Assembly: GCA_013697275.1 (NCBI GenBank)
Contig: JACCXC010000020.1
Location: 1 to 59,294, forward strand
Reading direction: 5' to 3'
DNA from: Actinomycetota bacterium
GTDB lineage: Bacteria > Actinomycetota > Thermoleophilia > Gaiellales > Gaiellaceae
DNA: 59,294 bases
Both the position numbers and the translations under genes were made by a program. Every line of letters starts with the position of its first letter. Within the stretch, counting starts at the first letter, position 1. The notes beneath the pieces were generated by a model. The model saw nothing but the letters and a program-made list of their open reading frames with translations, had not been told where the DNA came from and ran no database searches. Positions 3,477 to 25,352 of this stretch are shown piece after piece.

Positions 3477-4142
3477 TCAGCCGGCCGGGGTCGGCGGGCG
3501 CCTCGCTGCCGCGAGCCGCTCGCGCTGGTCGCGTGCCACGAGTTCGTCGATGTCCCCGGTGCGGCAGAGCTCCGTGAGTCGACCGTCCTCGACGCACACG
3601 GCCGAGAGGCGAGCGTGCGGCTCGACGGGCCGCAGCCGGCGATACGTGTGGACGTCCAACCCGAGCGCGGCGGCATGAATCGCGCGGATGCAGCCGCCAT
3701 GGGATACGACGAGCACCGGGCGCTCGGCCTGCTCAAGGGCGATCCGACGGACTGCGCGCAGGACTCGCTCGCTCAGCTGCTCGTACGTCTCGCCGCCCGT
3801 CCACCCGACGTAGCCGGCCTTCCAGTGCGCGAAGGATTCTGGCGAGCGGACCTTCGCCTCCGACTTGGTCAGGCCCGACCACGAGCCGACGTCCACCTCG
3901 CGAAGCTCAGGAGTCGTCCGGAGGTCGATGCCCCGCCGCTTCGGAACGACGGCGGCGGTGTTACGGGCCCGGCGTAAATCGCTCGACCAGACAGCCTCCA
4001 GCTCGGTGCCGTCCAGCCGGCCGGCGAGCGCCTCCGCCTGCTCGCGCCCGCGCTCGTTGAGCGGGCGGTCCGTGTGTCCCTGCCAGCGGTGCTCGGCGTT
4101 CCAGTCCGTCTCGCCGTGGCGGGCGAGCAGGATCGTGGCCAT
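3477..4142 (-). CDS. Histidine phosphatase family protein (phosphoglycerate mutase-like)
   Basis: A 221-residue protein starting MATILLARHGETDWN, with the RHG catalytic motif at residues 8-10 and the second histidine in VVSHGG. SSDLRRARNTA and the REVDVGSWSG segment are typical of the branch that includes cobalamin-pathway phosphatases and broad-specificity phosphatases. The reading frame stays open far upstream, but the ATG at 4142 places the RHG motif in its usual position and the upstream extension overlaps a real gene. The L,D-transpeptidase gene ends 8 nt before this start. The substrate cannot be predicted. Confidence 0.85.
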   Translation of the reverse strand: MATILLARHGETDWNAEHRWQGHTDRPLNERGREQAEALAGRLDGTELEAVWSSDLRRARNTAAVVPKRRGIDLRTTPELREVDVGSWSGLTKSEAKVRSPESFAHWKAGYVGWTGGETYEQLSERVLRAVRRIALEQAERPVLVVSHGGCIRAIHAAALGLDVHTYRRLRPVEPHARLSAVCVEDGRLTELCRTGDIDELVARDQRERLAAARRPPTPAG

Positions 4143-7290: not shown

Positions 7291-8927
7291 TCAAGAAGGA
7301 GTCGATCGAGCAGGTCCGCGCGGCCGCGGACATGGTCGACGTCGTCTCGGCGCGGACGCAGCTTCGCCGGGTGGGCGGGCGCTACGTCGGGCGCTGCCCC
7401 TTCCACGAGGAGCGAACGCCGAGCTTCTCCGTCAACGCGGTCGACAAGCTCTTCCACTGTTTCGGCTGCGGGAAGGGTGGCGACGTCTTCGGCTTCGTGC
7501 GCGAGACCGAGGCGCTCGAGTTCTCGGAAGCGGTCGAGTGGCTCGCCGAGCGTGCGGGCGTCGAGCTCGACTACGAGGAGAGCTCGCCGCAGGCCGACTC
7601 GGCGCGCCGACGCCGCGAGCGGCTCATCTTGCTCCTCGAGGATGCGGCCATCTTCTATTCGCGCAACCTCTGGGAGGGAGGGGCCGGCGAACGCGTCCGG
7701 GCCTACCTCGCCGAGCGCGGTCTGACCGAGGAGACCTGCCGCCGCTTCCGCCTCGGCCTGTCGCCGGGCCGGGGCCAGCTTCCGGCGAAGGCGCGAGCGA
7801 AAGGATTCGCGTCCCAGGAGCTCACCGCGGCCGGGCTCGTCAACCGCCGTGGCAACGACTACTTCGCAGGGCGGCTCGTATTCCCGCTCGCGGACGGGCG
7901 CGGACGGGTGCTCGGCTTCGGCGCGCGCCGCCTTTCCGAGGACGACCCGATTAGGGCGAAGTACGTCAACTCCCCGGAGGGCGAGCTCTTCCACAAGGTC
8001 TCGCTCGTCTACGGGCTCCACGAGGCGCGTGCTGCGATCGCGAAGGAAGATCGCGCAGTGGTCGTCGAGGGGTACACCGACGTTCTGGCGCTGAACCAAG
8101 CGGGACTCACGGCGGTCGTCGCCTCGATGGGGACGGCGCTCACGCCCGCGCAGCTGCGCGAGCTCGGCCGCCTGACCAAGCGCCTCTTCCTCTGCTTCGA
8201 TGCGGACGCTGCGGGAGAGGCGGCGACCCTGCGCGGGATGGACATGGCTTACCGTGACTTCGACGAGGTGCTGGTCGTGCCGCTTCCGCCCGGATCAGAC
8301 CCGGCCGAGAGCCCGGCCGAGTTCGAGGGCCTGCTCGCTGCTGCTGAGCCTTACCCACGCTACCGAGTGAAGCTCGAAATCGATCGGGCGCGCTCGAAGG
8401 AGGACGCGTATCGCCGCGTCCAGGCCCTCGTCTCGGGTTTTGAGCGAAACACCGAATGGATGGCCGCTGTGGAGTACGCGGCGGACCGCCTCGACCTCCC
8501 CGTCGAGCTGCAGCGGCGCCTGCCCGCGCTCGTCGCGGGTCGCCAGGGCGATGCTTCGGTACGAAAGGTTCTAGAAGCGGGCGACCGACTCGAGCGCGAC
8601 GCTCTCGCCGGGGTGCTCGCGCACCGCGGGCTCCTGGAGATCCTCCGGGAGGTCTCGCCCGAGCACTTCGACGTGGAGCTCCACCGCTCTCTTCGCGCGC
8701 ACCTGCTTGACGCGGAGCCGCTCGACCAGGAGCTGACCGTGCTCCTGGCCGAGCTGGACGCCCGCGCGGCAGCCGAGGGAATCGACGAGGCCACCTCCCG
8801 TGAGCTCCTCCTGCGCTTGCGCGAACGCCACCTACGCCGCGAGCTCGCCCACGCCGACGGCGAGCGGGTGAAGGAGCTCCAGGGCGAGCTGGAGCGCGTG
8901 CGCGAGGCCGCGAGCGCCCTGGTCTGA
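7281..8927 (+). CDS. dnaG: DNA primase
   Basis: A 548-residue primase that makes RNA primers at the replication fork. The CHC2 zinc finger has Cys39, His42, Cys60 and Cys63 (CPFHEERTPSF, HCFGCGKGGD). The TOPRIM core shows VVVEGYTDV and FDADAAG. The C-terminal helicase-interaction region is relatively short. The GTG start lies inside the end of dgt, indicating translational coupling. A tRNA-Asn gene follows after 31 nt. Confidence 0.96.
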   Translation: MALIKKESIEQVRAAADMVDVVSARTQLRRVGGRYVGRCPFHEERTPSFSVNAVDKLFHCFGCGKGGDVFGFVRETEALEFSEAVEWLAERAGVELDYEESSPQADSARRRRERLILLLEDAAIFYSRNLWEGGAGERVRAYLAERGLTEETCRRFRLGLSPGRGQLPAKARAKGFASQELTAAGLVNRRGNDYFAGRLVFPLADGRGRVLGFGARRLSEDDPIRAKYVNSPEGELFHKVSLVYGLHEARAAIAKEDRAVVVEGYTDVLALNQAGLTAVVASMGTALTPAQLRELGRLTKRLFLCFDADAAGEAATLRGMDMAYRDFDEVLVVPLPPGSDPAESPAEFEGLLAAAEPYPRYRVKLEIDRARSKEDAYRRVQALVSGFERNTEWMAAVEYAADRLDLPVELQRRLPALVAGRQGDASVRKVLEAGDRLERDALAGVLAHRGLLEILREVSPEHFDVELHRSLRAHLLDAEPLDQELTVLLAELDARAAAEGIDEATSRELLLRLRERHLRRELAHADGERVKELQGELERVREAASALV

Positions 8928-15726: not shown

Positions 15727-16251
15727 CTAGTAGCTCGTGTCGTCGTCCGAGCCCGAGCCGCTCGAATCCTCGGTACTCGTCTCGCCGGAGTCCGTGTGCG
15801 TCTCGCTCTCGCCCTCGTGCTCGGTGTCGGTCTCGCCGGTCTGATCCACGTCGGGGCTCGTACCGCCTCCGGCGATCCCGACCGTGAGGGTGCCGACCAT
15901 CCCGCGGTCCTTGTGGTCGCCGACCGGACAGTAGATCTCATATGTCCCGCCCTCGAGGCTCACCTCGAACGTCGTGGAATCGCCGCCGTTGATCGTCTCG
16001 GATTCCTCGTCGACGCCGTTTCCTTCGATCGCGAGGGCGTGTGGAGCACCGCCGTCGTTCGTGAGCTCGAAGGTGAGGTTGCCGTCGGAGGCGGTGATGC
16101 TCGCCGGCTCGAAGGCGAAGTCCGTCGCGCTCACCTGAATCGTCTCGCCGGCCGCGGACGAACCTTCTTCCGTCCCGTCGCCGCCGCCGCCGCAGGCCGT
16201 CGCGGCGAGGGGAAGGGCGAGCACAGTGAGAAGGAGAGCGAAGCGCCTCAT
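15727..16251 (-). CDS. Cupredoxin-domain lipoprotein
   Basis: A 174-residue lipoprotein. The lipobox LPLAATAC places the acylated cysteine at residue 20. A plastocyanin-like domain (about 38-125) keeps a full type-1 copper set: His71 (GAPHAL), Cys108, His113 and Met118 (YCPVGDHKDRGM). The tail is long and rich in Thr/Ser/Asp/Glu. It should sit on the outer face of the membrane and carry single electrons. It lies 480 nt from, and divergent to, the mau-like locus, where it could serve as an electron acceptor as amicyanin does in classical mau systems; that link is inference. Confidence 0.85.
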   Translation of the reverse strand: MRRFALLLTVLALPLAATACGGGGDGTEEGSSAAGETIQVSATDFAFEPASITASDGNLTFELTNDGGAPHALAIEGNGVDEESETINGGDSTTFEVSLEGGTYEIYCPVGDHKDRGMVGTLTVGIAGGGTSPDVDQTGETDTEHEGESETHTDSGETSTEDSSGSGSDDDTSY

Positions 16252-16259
16252 GTCGGATC

Positions 16260-16265
16260 GTTATA
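16260..16265 (-). promoter_or_regulatory. -10 box (TATAAC) of cupredoxin gene
   Basis: On the minus strand TATAAC is followed by 8 nt and the ATG at 16251, consistent with a leaderless or nearly leaderless mRNA. Confidence 0.45.
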
Positions 16266-16329
16266 CCCCTACGGGCCCAGGTCGGCACCGGTTTGCCGGG
16301 TCGGCTCCGCGGTAGGCTCTCAACGCAGC

Positions 16330-16403
16330 GGGCCCGTAGCTCAGCTGGTCAGAGCAGCGGACTCATAATCCGTTGGTCCCAGGTTCGAATCCTGGCGGGC
16401 CCA
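16330..16403 (+). tRNA. tRNA with CAT anticodon (elongator Met or lysidine-type Ile)
   Basis: A 74-nt cloverleaf with acceptor GGGCCCG / CGGGCCC, D-arm AGCTCAGCTGGTCAGAGC, anticodon loop CTCATAA and T-arm GGTTCGAATCC. CCA is not encoded. The anticodon alone cannot separate elongator Met from Ile2, which is modified by TilS. It is not initiator tRNA, because the G-C stack of the anticodon stem and the C1-A72 mismatch are absent. Confidence 0.93.
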
Positions 16404-16428
16404 CATCCGGCGGCCGTAAGGTGCGCCC

Positions 16429-16737: not shown

Positions 16738-17607
16738 GTGGAGACCGCAGCCCGGGCCGTCCTCGCCATCCTTCTTCTGATCGCGGCAGCCGCCAAGCTG
16801 CGGTCGCGCGCCGAGCTGCCCGAGCTACTAGGCGCCTATGGGATCCCCGGCCTGGCTCGGCGCCCGGCGGCGATTGCGCTCATCCTGGTAGAGGCATTCG
16901 TCGCCGTGCTCCTCCTCGTCGGCGCGCCTGGCTCCGCCTTCGCCGCGCTCGCGCTTGGGGCCGTCTTCGTGCTGGCCGCGGCGACCGCGCGGCTGCGCGG
17001 TCACAGGCGCGTTCGCTGCGGCTGCTTCGGCGCCGCCGAGCGCCCGTGGAGCTGGATACTGGCACGCGCCCTCGGGTTCACAGTCTTAGCAGGGGTGGCT
17101 GCCTTCGGCGGCGAACTCGATCTCGCTTCCCCGACCCGAGACACGCTGGTGCTCGCAGCCCTCGCCATCCTCGCCTTCGCCGTCCTCGTTCTAGGGGTGC
17201 TCGTCCTCGCCCTCTACCGCCACGTGGGCGTCCTCTCTCTACGGATTGCGCCGAGCGCGGCTCTTGAACTGGAAGGAGAGGGCCCGCCGGTCGGAACCCC
17301 GGCGCCCGCGCTCGCGGGTCTCACCCGGCGTGGCGCGGAGCTCGTCGCCTTCTTCGCCGAGGACTGCCGTCTCTGCCGGGATCTCGCGCCCGGCGTTCGC
17401 GCGCTAGAACGGGAGGGCGTTGCCGTTCGCATCGCGTACGAGGCGCAGGAAGGGCCTGCGTTCTCACGCTGGAACGTCCCCGGGGCGCCTTTCGTCGTCC
17501 ACATCGTCGACGGTGTCGTGGCGGCGAAGGGGCTCGTGAACACGTTGGAGCAGCTGGACGGCCTCGTGGCTACCGGCCGCGCAAGGAAGGCGCATGCGGC
17601 GGCCTGA
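16738..17607 (+). CDS. MauE-MauD-like fusion: membrane domain plus thioredoxin-like domain
   Basis: A 289-residue protein. The N-terminal half (about 1-160) has MauE/DoxX-like membrane segments and the MauE signature CGCFG (Cys94, Cys96). The C-terminal half (about 180-289) is a thioredoxin-like domain with CxxC motif CRLC (Cys210, Cys213) and a cis-proline loop VPGAPFVV (Pro251). In methylamine-utilising bacteria MauE and MauD are separate proteins needed to fold the disulfide-rich light chain; here they are fused. The gene overlaps the MauA-like gene by 14 nt, which supports a dedicated role in making its disulfides. Confidence 0.8.
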   Translation: METAARAVLAILLLIAAAAKLRSRAELPELLGAYGIPGLARRPAAIALILVEAFVAVLLLVGAPGSAFAALALGAVFVLAAATARLRGHRRVRCGCFGAAERPWSWILARALGFTVLAGVAAFGGELDLASPTRDTLVLAALAILAFAVLVLGVLVLALYRHVGVLSLRIAPSAALELEGEGPPVGTPAPALAGLTRRGAELVAFFAEDCRLCRDLAPGVRALEREGVAVRIAYEAQEGPAFSRWNVPGAPFVVHIVDGVVAAKGLVNTLEQLDGLVATGRARKAHAAA

Positions 17608-18193
17608 CGAGGTCGTCGACGGTGCGGCGGAGGCGCTCGCGGCCGGCCTTGCGCGCGGCCATACGCGCCGCTCGTTCCTCGGACGGGTCGGCGTGACGCT
17701 CCTCGCCGTCATGGGCGGCTCCGCGGTCGCGGCGGCCGTGCGCCCGGACGAGGCGGAGAGCTTCCATTTCTGCGGGCACATCTGGACCACTGGCTCGTGC
17801 CCGAATCCATATTCGCTGCCGCGAATCGACCGCCGCGGCTTTCCGCTCCGGCCGCGAGACGGCCGCCCGATCGACAATCTGGGCCGCCTCGTGGACGCCG
17901 AGGGCTACCCCGCCGACGAGACGGGCGCGCGGCTCGCCGGGCCGGACGGTGAGCTGCTCGAACGCGGGCCGCGCACACGACTCTGCGAGGACTGGGTGCC
18001 GGAGCAATTCCGAATCGACGCGGTCACACAGGGTTCCTGGTACCGCTGCTGCAGCGGTCAGGTCCGCAAGCTGGTGGACTGCTGCTCGACGAGCACGAAG
18101 CGCGTGAACGGCGACAAGGCGCTCAGGGGCTACTGCTACACGGGCCGGCGGGTCTTCTGCGTCATGTACTACGACACCGGGCTCCCGTGCTGA
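17594..18193 (+). CDS. MauA-like cysteine-rich Tat-exported protein (methylamine dehydrogenase light-chain-like)
   Basis: A 199-residue protein with a twin-arginine signal (HTRRSFLGRVGVTLLAV, about 24-40) and ten cysteines after it (60, 69, 131, 152, 153, 163, 164, 181, 189, 199). The C-terminal pattern GSWYRCC...VDCCS...GYCYTG resembles the methylamine dehydrogenase light chain, where SWVASC holds Trp57 and IIWCFG holds Trp108 of the TTQ cofactor. By this hand alignment Trp149 matches Trp57, while Tyr180 stands where Trp108 would be. A standard TTQ therefore seems unlikely. The N-terminal arrangement (DEVVDG...RGHTRR) also recalls MauA precursors. Its substrate is unknown. It overlaps genes on both sides. 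Confidence 0.65.
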   Translation: MRRPDEVVDGAAEALAAGLARGHTRRSFLGRVGVTLLAVMGGSAVAAAVRPDEAESFHFCGHIWTTGSCPNPYSLPRIDRRGFPLRPRDGRPIDNLGRLVDAEGYPADETGARLAGPDGELLERGPRTRLCEDWVPEQFRIDAVTQGSWYRCCSGQVRKLVDCCSTSTKRVNGDKALRGYCYTGRRVFCVMYYDTGLPC

Positions 18194-19578
18194 TCGAGGC
18201 GACGGTCGCCGTCGCCGCGCTCGTCGCGGGGATTTCCGGCGCCTGGTCGCCCTGAGGCCTGTCGATGATCGAAACGATCACTCCTGCCGTGTGCGGGAAC
18301 CGTAGGCGCCGGCGGATCGCAGTTGCCCTCTTCGGATTGGCCGCGATCCTCGCGGCAGCGCTCGTGGGCGCCGCGCTGGGCGCGCTCGGTGCCGCCCTGG
18401 GCGCTCGGCAGGCGGTGATCGCGGTGGCCGTGCTGGCCGGGCTTGCTGCGGCCAGCGAGCTGGGTTTCCTGCGGCTCCCTCTGCCGCAACTTCGATTGCA
18501 GGTTCCCGATTGGTGGCGCTTCCAGCTGCCGCTCCCAGTCTGGGCTGCCGGGTATGGCGCCGGGCTCGGGGTCGGGGTGCTGACCTATCAGCCTTTCGCG
18601 ACCTTCTGGATCGCCTGCGTGGCCGCCGTAACCGTGGCGAGCCCCGGAGCCGCGGCCGCCTGTTTCGCGCTGTACGGCGCCGGACGGACTCTGATGGTCG
18701 CCTGGCCCGCGCGCGGAGGCCGGGACGCTCCCCTCGCGGTCGAGGGGCTCGTCAGCCGCCGCCCGGCGCTCGCGCGCGCCAATGGGCTCGTCCTCGCCGC
18801 CACCGCGCTCGCTCTCGGCCTTGCCGCTGTCCCCGCCGCCGCCGCCCAGCCCATTTACCTGGGCGGGGGGAATCAGCTCGACCCATCGGTCTCGAGCGGG
18901 ACGCTCGCCTACACCCAGCGTGACGGCACCGTCGCCGGGGTCGTCCTTCGCCCGTCGGGGAGCCACGATGTGACCTACACCGGGCGAACGCCCTCGCTCG
19001 ACGGCAACGTGCTGGCCTATGCCGCTGCGGACGGCATCCACGTGGTCCGCTGGCGCTCACGCGAGGAGCTCCAGCGCGCCCCGAACGCGTCGATGCCCGC
19101 ACTCGACTGGCCTTGGCTTGCCTATCGAATCGACACGTGGGATGGAGCCCGTGAGCTCTGGTTGACGAACCTCGCCAGCGGAGATCTACGGCTCCTGACC
19201 CGGGTCGGCGCAGGCCTCGACCTCGGTCGTGCAAGCGTCGCGGCCGGTCGTGTCGCTTGGACTGTCTCCGGCGTGCAGGGGTCACGCATCGGCCTCTACA
19301 CGATCGAGACAGAGAAGCGGCGGATCTTCGTCCGCAGCAAGATCTCCGTCCTCGCGAATCCGGCACTGAGCGATTCGCGGATCCTCTGGGTGGAGCAGAA
19401 ACGCGGGTTCTCGTACTTGCGCCTTCGGCCGCTCGAGAGCTCGAGGACGACGACTCTCGCGAGCTCGGGTGATCGCGACCTCGTCTTCTGGACGACCGCC
19501 CTCTCCGGCCGGGACGCCTACGTCACGGTCTGGCTCGTCTCGAGCGGGGTCGCCCAGTTGGAGCGCTACCGGTTCTAG
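18187..19578 (+). CDS. CcdA-like membrane domain plus beta-propeller-like domain, with in-frame TGA (possible selenocysteine)
   Basis: A GTG at 18187 overlaps the MauA-like stop by 7 nt and opens a frame reading MLIEATVAVAALVAGISGAW-SP, then TGA (18253-18255, codon 23), then GLSMIETI and on to 19578 (463 codons). CcdA/DsbD-type membrane proteins have a catalytic SPC at the end of the first helix; the TGA falls on that cysteine. About five to six hydrophobic segments fill residues 1-210. Residues 215-463 are repeated beta-rich units (SGTLAYTQRDGT, LDGNVLAYAAADG, DWPWLAYRIDTWDG, AAGRVAWTVSGVQG) like TolB or WD-type propellers. If there is no recoding, the ATG at 18265 gives a 437-residue protein without the SPC helix and without a good ribosome binding site. 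Confidence 0.6.
18266..18280 (+). promoter_or_regulatory. Candidate SECIS-like hairpin downstream of in-frame TGA
   Basis: TGATC GAAAC GATCA (stem up to 6 bp, TGATCG/CGATCA) starts 10 nt after the TGA. Bacterial SECIS elements lie just 3' of the UGA with a small apical loop that has a G among its first two bases; with a 5-bp stem the loop here is GAAAC. The hairpin is short and could be chance. Confidence 0.3.
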
Positions 19579-24632: not shown

Positions 24633-25352
24633 TCAGGTTCGGCGCCAGGGGCGACGCGCTGGCGTCGGATCCCTGTTGCCCCTCGCGTCCGTCGCGCGTG
24701 CCTGGAAGGTGTGCGCGCCCCGCCTGAGCCCATGGTAGGTCTTCTGGGCCCTGCACGGGGTCCAGGGCCCGCGGTCGAGCTTGCACTCAAACTTCGATCC
24801 GGCTTCGCTGGAGCGCAGGCGGAAGGTGGCGCGCGCTGCCCGTGTCCGTGCTGGGGGCCCGGAGGCGATCGTCGTCTGGGGCGCGGCGGTGTCCAGCGGG
24901 GGATGCGGTGGTGGTGGCGGCGGCAATGGTGGTGGTGGTGGTAGAGGTGGCGGAGGAGACGGTGGCGGAGGTGGCGGAGGTGGCGGTGGAGGTGAAGTCG
25001 GCGGTGACGGGCCAGCGGAGCCCACGGTGAACGACCCGTTGATGTACGAGTGGACGTCACAGCGGTACGTGTACTCCCCCGCGGCCAAGGTCACCGTGAA
25101 GTCGAACGTTCCTTCGCCGGTGACGGGCGTCACCGCCCCGGTGCCGAAGAGATTGAAGTTGTGCACGCTCGAGCTGTCGACCACGCGGAGCGAGTAGGTG
25201 CCCGGAGCAAGGTTCGTCACGGCGGTGCCGTCGGCGCGCACCAATCCGATCGCGCCGGCGTCGTCGATCGCGCCGAGAAGGTCCTGCCCGCTTGCAGGGC
25301 CAGCCCCGAGGAGCCAGGCGAACACGGCGAAGGCCGCGAGAACGGATCGCAC
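24633..25352 (-). CDS. Secreted cupredoxin-like protein with polyproline linker
   Basis: A 239-residue exported protein: signal peptide (LAAFAVFAWLLGAGPASGQ), a cupredoxin-like domain (about 30-115) with His64 (SVHNFNL), Cys98 and His101 (YRCDVHSY), a polyproline linker (about 117-150) and a C-terminal Ig-like module (APQTTIASGPP...FECKLDRGPWTPC...HTFQARATDARGN). The axial methionine expected shortly after His101 is not obvious (YINGS there), so copper binding is uncertain. The linker is encoded by a GGT/GGC-rich tract (about 24905-25000) prone to length change. It interrupts the plus-strand yebC-ruvC series. Confidence 0.78.
   Translation of the reverse strand: MRSVLAAFAVFAWLLGAGPASGQDLLGAIDDAGAIGLVRADGTAVTNLAPGTYSLRVVDSSSVHNFNLFGTGAVTPVTGEGTFDFTVTLAAGEYTYRCDVHSYINGSFTVGSAGPSPPTSPPPPPPPPPPPSPPPPLPPPPPLPPPPPPHPPLDTAAPQTTIASGPPARTRAARATFRLRSSEAGSKFECKLDRGPWTPCRAQKTYHGLRRGAHTFQARATDARGNRDPTPARRPWRRT

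What the first reader, a model, noticed from the sequence alone, without database searches (positions are those of the whole stretch)
16738..19578. Compact methylamine-dehydrogenase-like locus with fused MauE-MauD and an altered MauA-like light chain
Three overlapping genes encode a MauE-MauD fusion (CGCFG, CRLC), a Tat-exported ten-cysteine MauA-like protein, and a CcdA-like membrane domain joined to a propeller-like domain. Classical MADH consists of a TTQ light chain and a propeller heavy chain, so the parts list is similar but rearranged and membrane-bound. By hand alignment the light chain keeps the Trp57 equivalent (Trp149) but has Tyr180 where Trp108 should be, so the cofactor, if any, would differ from TTQ. 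No MauG-like gene is seen in the window.
Basis: partly seen in the sequence, partly recalled or inferred. Interest (0 to 1): 0.78.

Follow-up and report, generated by a model that had tools for sequence, protein, structure and literature searches.

The report
Selenocysteine-containing MauF in mau-like operon
Three overlapping genes in an actinobacterium form a compact relative of the methylamine-dehydrogenase maturation set, and the third gene appears to use the rare amino acid selenocysteine, written as a 'stop' codon, at the key redox position of its membrane domain, which would make it a selenoprotein family missing from the latest published inventory.

Summary
The three genes are real and conserved. 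Gene 1 (16738-17607) is a MauE-MauD fusion. Gene 2 (17594-18193) is a Tat-exported protein with ten invariant Cys plus invariant Trp149, Asp162 and Tyr180. Gene 3 is mis-started at ATG 18265: it begins at GTG 18187, overlapping gene 2's stop, and reads through an in-frame TGA (18253-18255) on the conserved Cys of the WSPCG motif shared with P. denitrificans MauF. In 50 loci the codon is TGA in 28 and Cys in 22. Between TGA and the next ATG, substitutions follow the codon frame. A covarying hairpin follows the TGA and is absent from Cys relatives. SelA is enriched in TGA genomes, and selA-selB lie directly upstream in two loci. I conclude that gene 3 encodes a selenocysteine-containing MauF-like membrane domain fused to a six-bladed propeller. 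A 2026 list of 119 prokaryotic selenoprotein families has no such entry. Homology of gene 2 to MADH light chains is likely but unproven (no Pfam match; best solved fold AADH light chain, Z 4.2). The heavy-chain reading of the propeller is not supported; MauG is mostly absent. An altered quinone cofactor remains a guess. Selenium incorporation itself is untested.

The parts
16738..17607 (+). Gene 1: MauE-MauD fusion (GTG start); MauE domain about 16747-17106 with CGCFG, MauD/thioredoxin half about 17152-17604 with CRLC
   Evidence: PF07291 E 1.2e-19; TIGR02661 33.7 bits, below its cut-off of 188.6; MauD homologue immediately upstream of gene 2 in nearly all loci
17594..18193 (+). Gene 2: Tat-exported MauA-like protein, 199 aa, Cys 60, 69, 131, 152, 153, 163, 164, 181, 189, 199; Trp149, Asp162, Tyr180
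   Evidence: Conservation in 54 sequences; AF2 model with block pLDDT 89-98 from residue 71 on; VIA best match AADH light chain Z 4.2
18187..19578 (+). Gene 3, corrected: GTG start overlapping the gene 2 stop; MauF-like membrane domain (18187 to about 18837) with selenocysteine at residue 23, fused to a six-bladed propeller (about 18838-19575)
   Evidence: Frame and homologues; MauF similarity; AF2 mean pLDDT 91.7
18253..18255 (+). In-frame TGA read as selenocysteine in the WSP-U-G motif; Cys in 22 relatives and in P. denitrificans MauF
18281..18299 (+). SECIS-like hairpin 28-46 nt downstream of the first base of the TGA
   Evidence: Compensatory changes in 6 of 8 pairs; mean 6.1 of 7 pairs in TGA loci against 2.8 in Cys loci
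18265..18267 (+).

Best explanation
The locus is a compact mau-like operon: a mauED fusion, a Tat-exported ten-Cys MauA-like protein, and a mauF-propeller fusion whose MauF domain carries selenocysteine, encoded by TGA 18253-18255, at the conserved redox position of its first membrane helix. Proposed working: gene 2's product is exported by Tat; MauE (CxC), MauD (CxxC) and MauF (Sec) form a membrane thiol-disulfide relay that makes or corrects its disulfides on the outer face; the propeller domain binds or presents the product; the mature gene 2 protein is an exported redox protein related to amine dehydrogenase light chains. Shown by sequence: gene order, the frame through TGA, Cys/TGA exchange, the hairpin with covariation, and Sec-synthesis genes. 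Inferred: selenium insertion in the cell, the relay, and any enzyme activity. I put about 0.93 on selenocysteine, about 0.75 on homology of gene 2 with MADH light chains, and about 0.35 on amine or similar substrate oxidation by a Trp-derived quinone. The confidence given is for the anatomy with selenocysteine; the relay by itself I hold at about 0.6.
For: At the WSPxG motif the codon is TGA in 28 loci and TGC/TGT in 22, always in one open frame. Codon-position divergence before the TGA is 0.23, 0.17, 0.44. In the three codons between TGA and the next ATG, differences are 451 synonymous to 344 non-synonymous, against 62:517 and 0:578 in the other frames. The hairpin after TGA has 82.8% of cells paired, against 45-65% when slid, and 6 of 8 pairs have changes on both sides; 23 of 28 TGA loci but 0 of 22 Cys loci reach 6 of 7 pairs. 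A TGA clade nested in Cys relatives (L047, L053, L059, L064) departs from that hairpin; L053 and L059 fold other stems there. SelA occurs in 16 of 19 TGA genomes and 140 of 280 others, p 0.004. selA-selB lie directly upstream of the locus in L051 and L062. The own genome has selD (338 bits) and a selA cut off by a contig end. MauF homology: BLASTP E 7e-9, with an invariant P-C/U column including P. denitrificans. One MauF relative reaches Pfam DsbD_TM at E 6e-4.
Against: selB and tRNA-Sec were not found in the fragmented own genome; its candidate tRNAs are Ser and Leu. Three TGA genomes (78, 88 and 91% complete) show no SelA over the cut-off. Within the locus-bearing genomes alone, SelA does not separate TGA from Cys (p 0.32). 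A GAGG Shine-Dalgarno-like string arises at TGA+GG in 25 of 28 loci. Folding energies of the hairpin windows are not unusual against shuffles. No Rfam match. No protein or selenium data.
Confidence: 0.82

Rival explanations
1. The TGA is a real stop. A short leader peptide ends there and translation restarts at ATG 18265, giving a MauF lacking the first half of helix 1.
For: GAGG stands shortly before the ATG in 25 of 28 loci, and the Met codon is ATG in 27 of 28.
Against: The nine bases between TGA and ATG vary as codons of the same frame and mostly encode the same G-[LF]-[SA] as in Cys relatives. The downstream hairpin covaries and is found only in TGA loci. The Met is equally conserved in Cys relatives, where no restart is needed.
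Confidence: 0.05
2. A compact methylamine-type dehydrogenase: gene 2 is the catalytic light chain with a Trp-Tyr-derived cofactor and the propeller is its heavy chain.
For: MauE, MauD and MauF kin surround gene 2. Trp149, Asp162 and Tyr180 are invariant. AADH light chain is the best fold match at Z 4.2, next 3.1. A Thermomicrobium light chain with a PF02975 match shares SWYxCC and C-x7-C with it.
Against: No PF02975 match in gene 2 and no PF06433 in any of 37 genomes (without a positive control). The propeller is six-bladed TolB-like and is absent behind MauF in the distant clade. MauG is in only 5 of 37 genomes.
Confidence: 0.25
3. Gene 2 has no quinone; it is a disulfide-rich structural, binding or sensor protein, and MauE/MauD/MauF serve only its disulfides.
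For: Ten invariant Cys, no second Trp at the TTQ place, mostly no MauG.
Against: Invariance of Trp149 and Asp162 at the positions that align with the TTQ Trp and the catalytic Asp is unexplained by disulfides alone.
Confidence: 0.4
4. TGA codes for another residue, or the loci are pseudogenes or sequencing errors.
For: Many loci come from metagenome-assembled genomes.
Against: The same codon in 28 loci of several families, with intact downstream frames of about 200-490 codons where the contig is long enough, and Cys at the same site elsewhere.
Confidence: 0.02

Closest known systems
mauFBEDA genes of the methylamine utilisation cluster of Paracoccus denitrificans
   Same: MauE, MauD and MauF kin around a Tat-exported Cys-rich MauA-like protein; the WSPCG motif of MauF is shared
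   Different: Order ED-A-F(propeller) instead of F-B-E-D-A, with fusions; no MADH heavy chain, amicyanin or MauG gene in the operon; Tyr where the second TTQ Trp would be; TGA for the MauF Cys
Aromatic amine dehydrogenase (AADH) light chain
   Same: Top solved-structure match of the gene 2 model (2agy_H, Z 4.2, rmsd 3.4, 74 residues); Tat export
   Different: 16% identity over the match, only ten Cys in gene 2, a long polar insert 72-130, no second Trp
Thermomicrobium roseum plasmid light-chain cluster (NC_011961, L092)
   Same: SWYMCC...DCC...NWC-x7-C resembles SWYRCC...DCC...GYC-x7-C; MauE- and MauD-like genes and propellers adjacent
   Different: Both TTQ Trp kept; two light chains and several propellers; no WSPC motif seen in the small membrane protein beside them
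DsbD/CcdA membrane thiol-disulfide carriers and the selenoprotein TsoB (rhodanese/DsbD fusion-like)
   Same: DsbD_TM-type membrane domain with a redox Cys/Sec
   Different: TsoB has UxxxxU and a rhodanese part (PMC13188914); here there is a single conserved Cys/Sec in WSPxG, next to a MauA-like gene

Membership tests
Bacterial selenoprotein | In-frame TGA aligned with Cys in homologues | tested here: met
   28 TGA, 22 Cys
Bacterial selenoprotein | SECIS-like hairpin directly downstream of the TGA | tested here: met
   Covariation and absence from Cys loci; no Rfam match
Bacterial selenoprotein | selA, selB, selD, tRNA-Sec in the genome | tested here: inconclusive
   selD full and selA cut by a contig end in the own genome; selB and tRNA-Sec not found there; selA, selB and tRNA-Sec over cut-off in several TGA relatives
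Bacterial selenoprotein | Selenium in the protein | not testable with these tools
   Needs 75Se labelling or mass spectrometry
MauF | Sequence homology including WSPCG and the QVP/YG..LG..T motifs | tested here: met
   BLASTP E 7e-9 and alignment A7
MauE (PF07291) | Pfam match over cut-off | tested here: met
   71.3 bits, cut-off 27
MauD (TIGR02661) | Match over the equivalog cut-off | tested here: not met
   33.7 bits against 188.6; MauD-like only
MADH light chain (PF02975) | Pfam match over cut-off | tested here: not met
MADH light chain (PF02975) | Same fold | tested here: inconclusive
   AADH light chain top at Z 4.2; Foldseek nothing significant
MADH light chain (PF02975) | Both TTQ Trp (57 and 108) | tested here: not met
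   Trp149 kept, Tyr180 at the second place, by motif alignment
MADH light chain (PF02975) | Catalytic Asp before the Cys pair (Asp76) | tested here: met
   D162 invariant in D-C-C
MADH heavy chain (PF06433) | Pfam match and seven-bladed propeller | tested here: not met
   No PF06433 match in gene 3; best folds are six-bladed designs and TolB, Z 21-22

The most novel reading that the evidence does not exclude
A selenocysteine-dependent membrane maturation relay builds a new protein-derived cofactor, from Trp149 with Tyr180 in place of the second TTQ tryptophan, without MauG, in a widespread actinobacterial redox enzyme.
Probability: 0.2. Interest if true: 0.93.

Novelty: new variant of a known kind. 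Interest (0 to 1): 0.8.

Why it matters
The gene is cut short by standard ORF calling because its redox codon looks like a stop, so a selenoprotein present across Thermoleophilia and deeper Actinomycetota may have been overlooked. MauF has been a membrane protein of unclear role (general knowledge); selenocysteine at its one conserved Cys marks that residue as redox-active and makes its function testable. It ties selenium to the maturation of a MauA-like protein and gives natural Sec/Cys pairs for comparison.

Tried and rejected
PF02975 in 299 class genomes and 396 phylum genomes gave nothing over cut-off. hmmsearch of the gene 2 profile against PDB sequences found no MADH chain. Profile-profile comparison matched only the Tat region; mature parts alone gave P about 0.03 on the W..C..DCC motif. 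Foldseek gave no significant match for gene 2. Gene 2 C-termini against P. denitrificans or AADH light chains were not significant by shuffles; against the second Thermomicrobium chain p was about 0.02-0.03. Folding energies of the hairpin windows against mononucleotide shuffles were uninformative. T. roseum's small membrane protein does not align to the gene 3 membrane domain by BLASTP. Literature searches for selenoprotein with MauF, selenocysteine with Thermoleophilia, and methylamine dehydrogenase with selenocysteine gave nothing relevant. The tRNA-Sec covariance search over 37 genomes is noisy because Ser and Leu tRNAs also score. Pseudogene and sequencing-error readings of the TGA were rejected on recurrence.

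Full report
What was checked. The three genes exist at the stated places. Gene 1 (16738-17607) carries a MauE domain (PF07291, 71.3 bits against a cut-off of 27) and a thioredoxin-like half that resembles MauD but does not reach the MauD equivalog cut-off; CGCFG is at residue 94 and CRLC at residue 210. Gene 2 (17594-18193) is a Tat-exported 199-residue protein with ten Cys. Gene 3 as listed from ATG 18265 is a membrane domain plus propeller.

How widespread it is. Gene 2 has relatives in 39 of 299 genomes sampled from the window's class, and a scan of genomes of 84,980 species gave 55 loci, nearly all labelled Actinomycetota, including named Solirubrobacter, Conexibacter and Miltoncostaea. 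In nearly all of them a MauD homologue stands directly before gene 2, and a relative of the gene 3 membrane domain and/or propeller stands behind it. In 54 aligned sequences all ten Cys, Trp149, Asp162 and Tyr180 are invariant. In a distant clade MauE is a separate, divergent gene or is fused to MauF, and no propeller is fused; in two genomes of another branch (L012, L013) the MauF part is missing behind gene 2 and the propeller has its own signal peptide. The conserved core is therefore MauE, MauD, the MauA-like protein and, in most, MauF.

The start of gene 3 and the TGA. The listed start is internal. Relatives read ...GAWSPCGFSMVET..., and P. denitrificans MauF reads ...STWSPCGYSS.... In the window the frame runs from GTG 18187, overlapping the gene 2 stop, to TGG TCG CCC TGA GGC CTG TCG ATG ATC, with TGA exactly on the Cys codon (18253-18255). 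Over 50 loci in which the site can be read, the codon is TGA in 28 and TGC or TGT in 22. This is the Cys/TGA exchange used to recognise selenoproteins (PMC12013277).

Evidence that the TGA is translated. First, before the TGA, codon-position divergence among seven close loci is 0.23, 0.17 and 0.44. Second, the nine bases between the TGA and the next ATG vary mainly at third positions: 451 synonymous to 344 non-synonymous pairwise codon differences, against 62 to 517 and 0 to 578 in the other two frames. If translation restarted at the ATG, there would be no reason for this.

Evidence for a selenocysteine insertion hairpin. A stem lies 28-46 bases downstream of the first base of the TGA, for example CTCCCGC-CGTGT-GCGGGAG in L033 and CCCCGTG-GTC-CACGGGG in the distant clade. 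Across 28 loci 82.8% of cells pair, against 45-65% when the partner is slid, and six of eight pairs have changes on both sides. Of the seven outer pairs, TGA loci form 6.1 on average and Cys loci 2.8; 23 of 28 TGA loci but none of 22 Cys loci reach six. One changed pair (columns 35 and 41) lies at second codon positions, so Ala/Val and Cys/His in the protein change together with the stem. A tree of gene 2 needs three Sec/Cys changes; one TGA clade (L047, L053, L059, L064) sits inside Cys relatives, does not form the common hairpin, and in L053 and L059 folds a differently placed stem, which fits a separate gain.

Selenocysteine machinery. SelA is found over cut-off in 16 of 19 TGA genomes and 140 of the 280 other class genomes (Fisher p 0.004). 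Inside the set of locus-bearing genomes the contrast TGA against Cys is not significant (16/19 against 5/8, p 0.32). In L051 and L062 selA and selB lie immediately upstream of the mauED gene, and a tRNA-Sec match lies on the same contig in the second of these. The window's own assembly has selD (338 bits) and the first part of selA, which runs to base 3513 of a 3515-base contig. selB and tRNA-Sec were not found there; a gap after selA could hold them, which is an inference.

Rival: restart. The string GAGG, formed by TGA and the Gly codon, looks like a ribosome-binding site for ATG 18265 in 25 of 28 loci. I rate restart at about 5% because of the codon pattern between TGA and ATG, the covarying hairpin and the same Met in Cys relatives.

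Nature of gene 3. The membrane domain matches P. denitrificans MauF (BLASTP E 7e-9 over 84 residues) and aligns through the WSPCG motif, with Pro-Cys/Sec invariant. A distant member reaches Pfam DsbD_TM at E 6e-4, below its curated cut-off. The model of the whole protein has mean pLDDT 91.7; residues 219-463 match six-bladed propellers (Pizza6, TolB) at Z 21-22 (Foldseek). The MADH heavy-chain family PF06433 does not match and was not found in 37 genomes with the locus, although that search had no positive control.

Nature of gene 2. No Pfam match. Profile comparison with eight MADH/AADH light chains aligns only the Tat region, at 95.7% probability; the mature parts give P about 0.03. The model is confident from residue 71 on (block means 89-98). 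Foldseek finds nothing significant, while VIA-align ranks the AADH light chain 2agy_H first at Z 4.2 over 74 residues, next entry 3.1; by the tool's own guidance such a Z can be a common arrangement. A Thermomicrobium roseum plasmid holds an unannotated light chain with PF02975 E 9.8e-11 that reads SWYMCC...DCC...NNWCGTGSVVC, close to SWYRCC...DCC...RGYCYTGRRVFC here; shuffles give p about 0.02-0.03. Taken with MauE, MauD and MauF around it, I put homology at about 0.75. On that alignment Trp149 stands at TTQ Trp57, Asp162 at catalytic Asp76 and Tyr180 at Trp108. MauG is in only 5 of 37 locus-bearing genomes and not in this one.

How it probably works. From established knowledge, MauE and MauD serve folding of the MADH light chain, and DsbD/CcdA-type proteins carry thiol redox equivalents through the membrane on Cys residues, one of them in a proline-Cys motif of helix 1. 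A Sec in MauF at that place suggests a selenol-based relay, with MauE CxC and MauD CxxC, that sets the disulfides of gene 2's product. That is inference. Whether the product carries a Trp-derived quinone, with Tyr180 replacing the second Trp, is open.

Known or new. A May 2026 review lists 119 prokaryotic selenoprotein families and subfamilies (PMC13188914); none is MauF or has a WSPUG motif, the nearest being the rhodanese/DsbD fusion-like TsoB. NCBIfam and Pfam have no model that matches gene 3 over its cut-off. Unpublished or unlisted candidates, such as those from groundwater genomes mentioned in that review, could not be checked. I call it a new variant: a new selenoprotein family within a rearranged mau-like system.

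Noticed in passing
window 15727-16251 (-): Secreted cupredoxin (PF13473, PF00127) close to the locus but on the other strand; could be an electron acceptor. A hit near the locus was seen in only one relative (L033).
   Followed up: partly
window 24633-25352 (-): Second secreted cupredoxin-like protein (YRCDVHSYINGSF) with a long proline-rich stretch; seen in the ORF list only.
   Followed up: no
window 16330-16404 (+): tRNA-Met gene just upstream of the locus; the mechanical ORF 15796-16368 runs into it.
   Followed up: yes
L092 about 7995-8312 (Thermomicrobium roseum plasmid NC_011961): Unannotated MADH light-chain gene (PF02975 E 9.8e-11), in a cluster with a second light chain, several propeller-like proteins, a propeller-MauE fusion and a MauD-like protein.
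   Followed up: partly
L012, L013: MauF part absent behind gene 2; the propeller follows directly with its own signal peptide.
   Followed up: partly
L043, L044, L049: In some Solirubrobacter the MauF gene (Cys form) lies about 3.7 kb downstream of gene 2 instead of adjacent.
   Followed up: partly
L086:6510-8305: MauF (TGA form) fused to MauE in the MAG KatS3mg013.
   Followed up: partly
L079:4163-4933 (-) and kin in L076, L077, L081-L084: The distant clade carries a conserved secreted protein of about 200 residues without Pfam match upstream of the mau genes.
   Followed up: no
window gene 2, residues 77-130: Repeated D-x-x-G-x-P-x-D-like motifs in the insert between Cys69 and Cys131; shortened in the distant clade; role unknown.
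   Followed up: no
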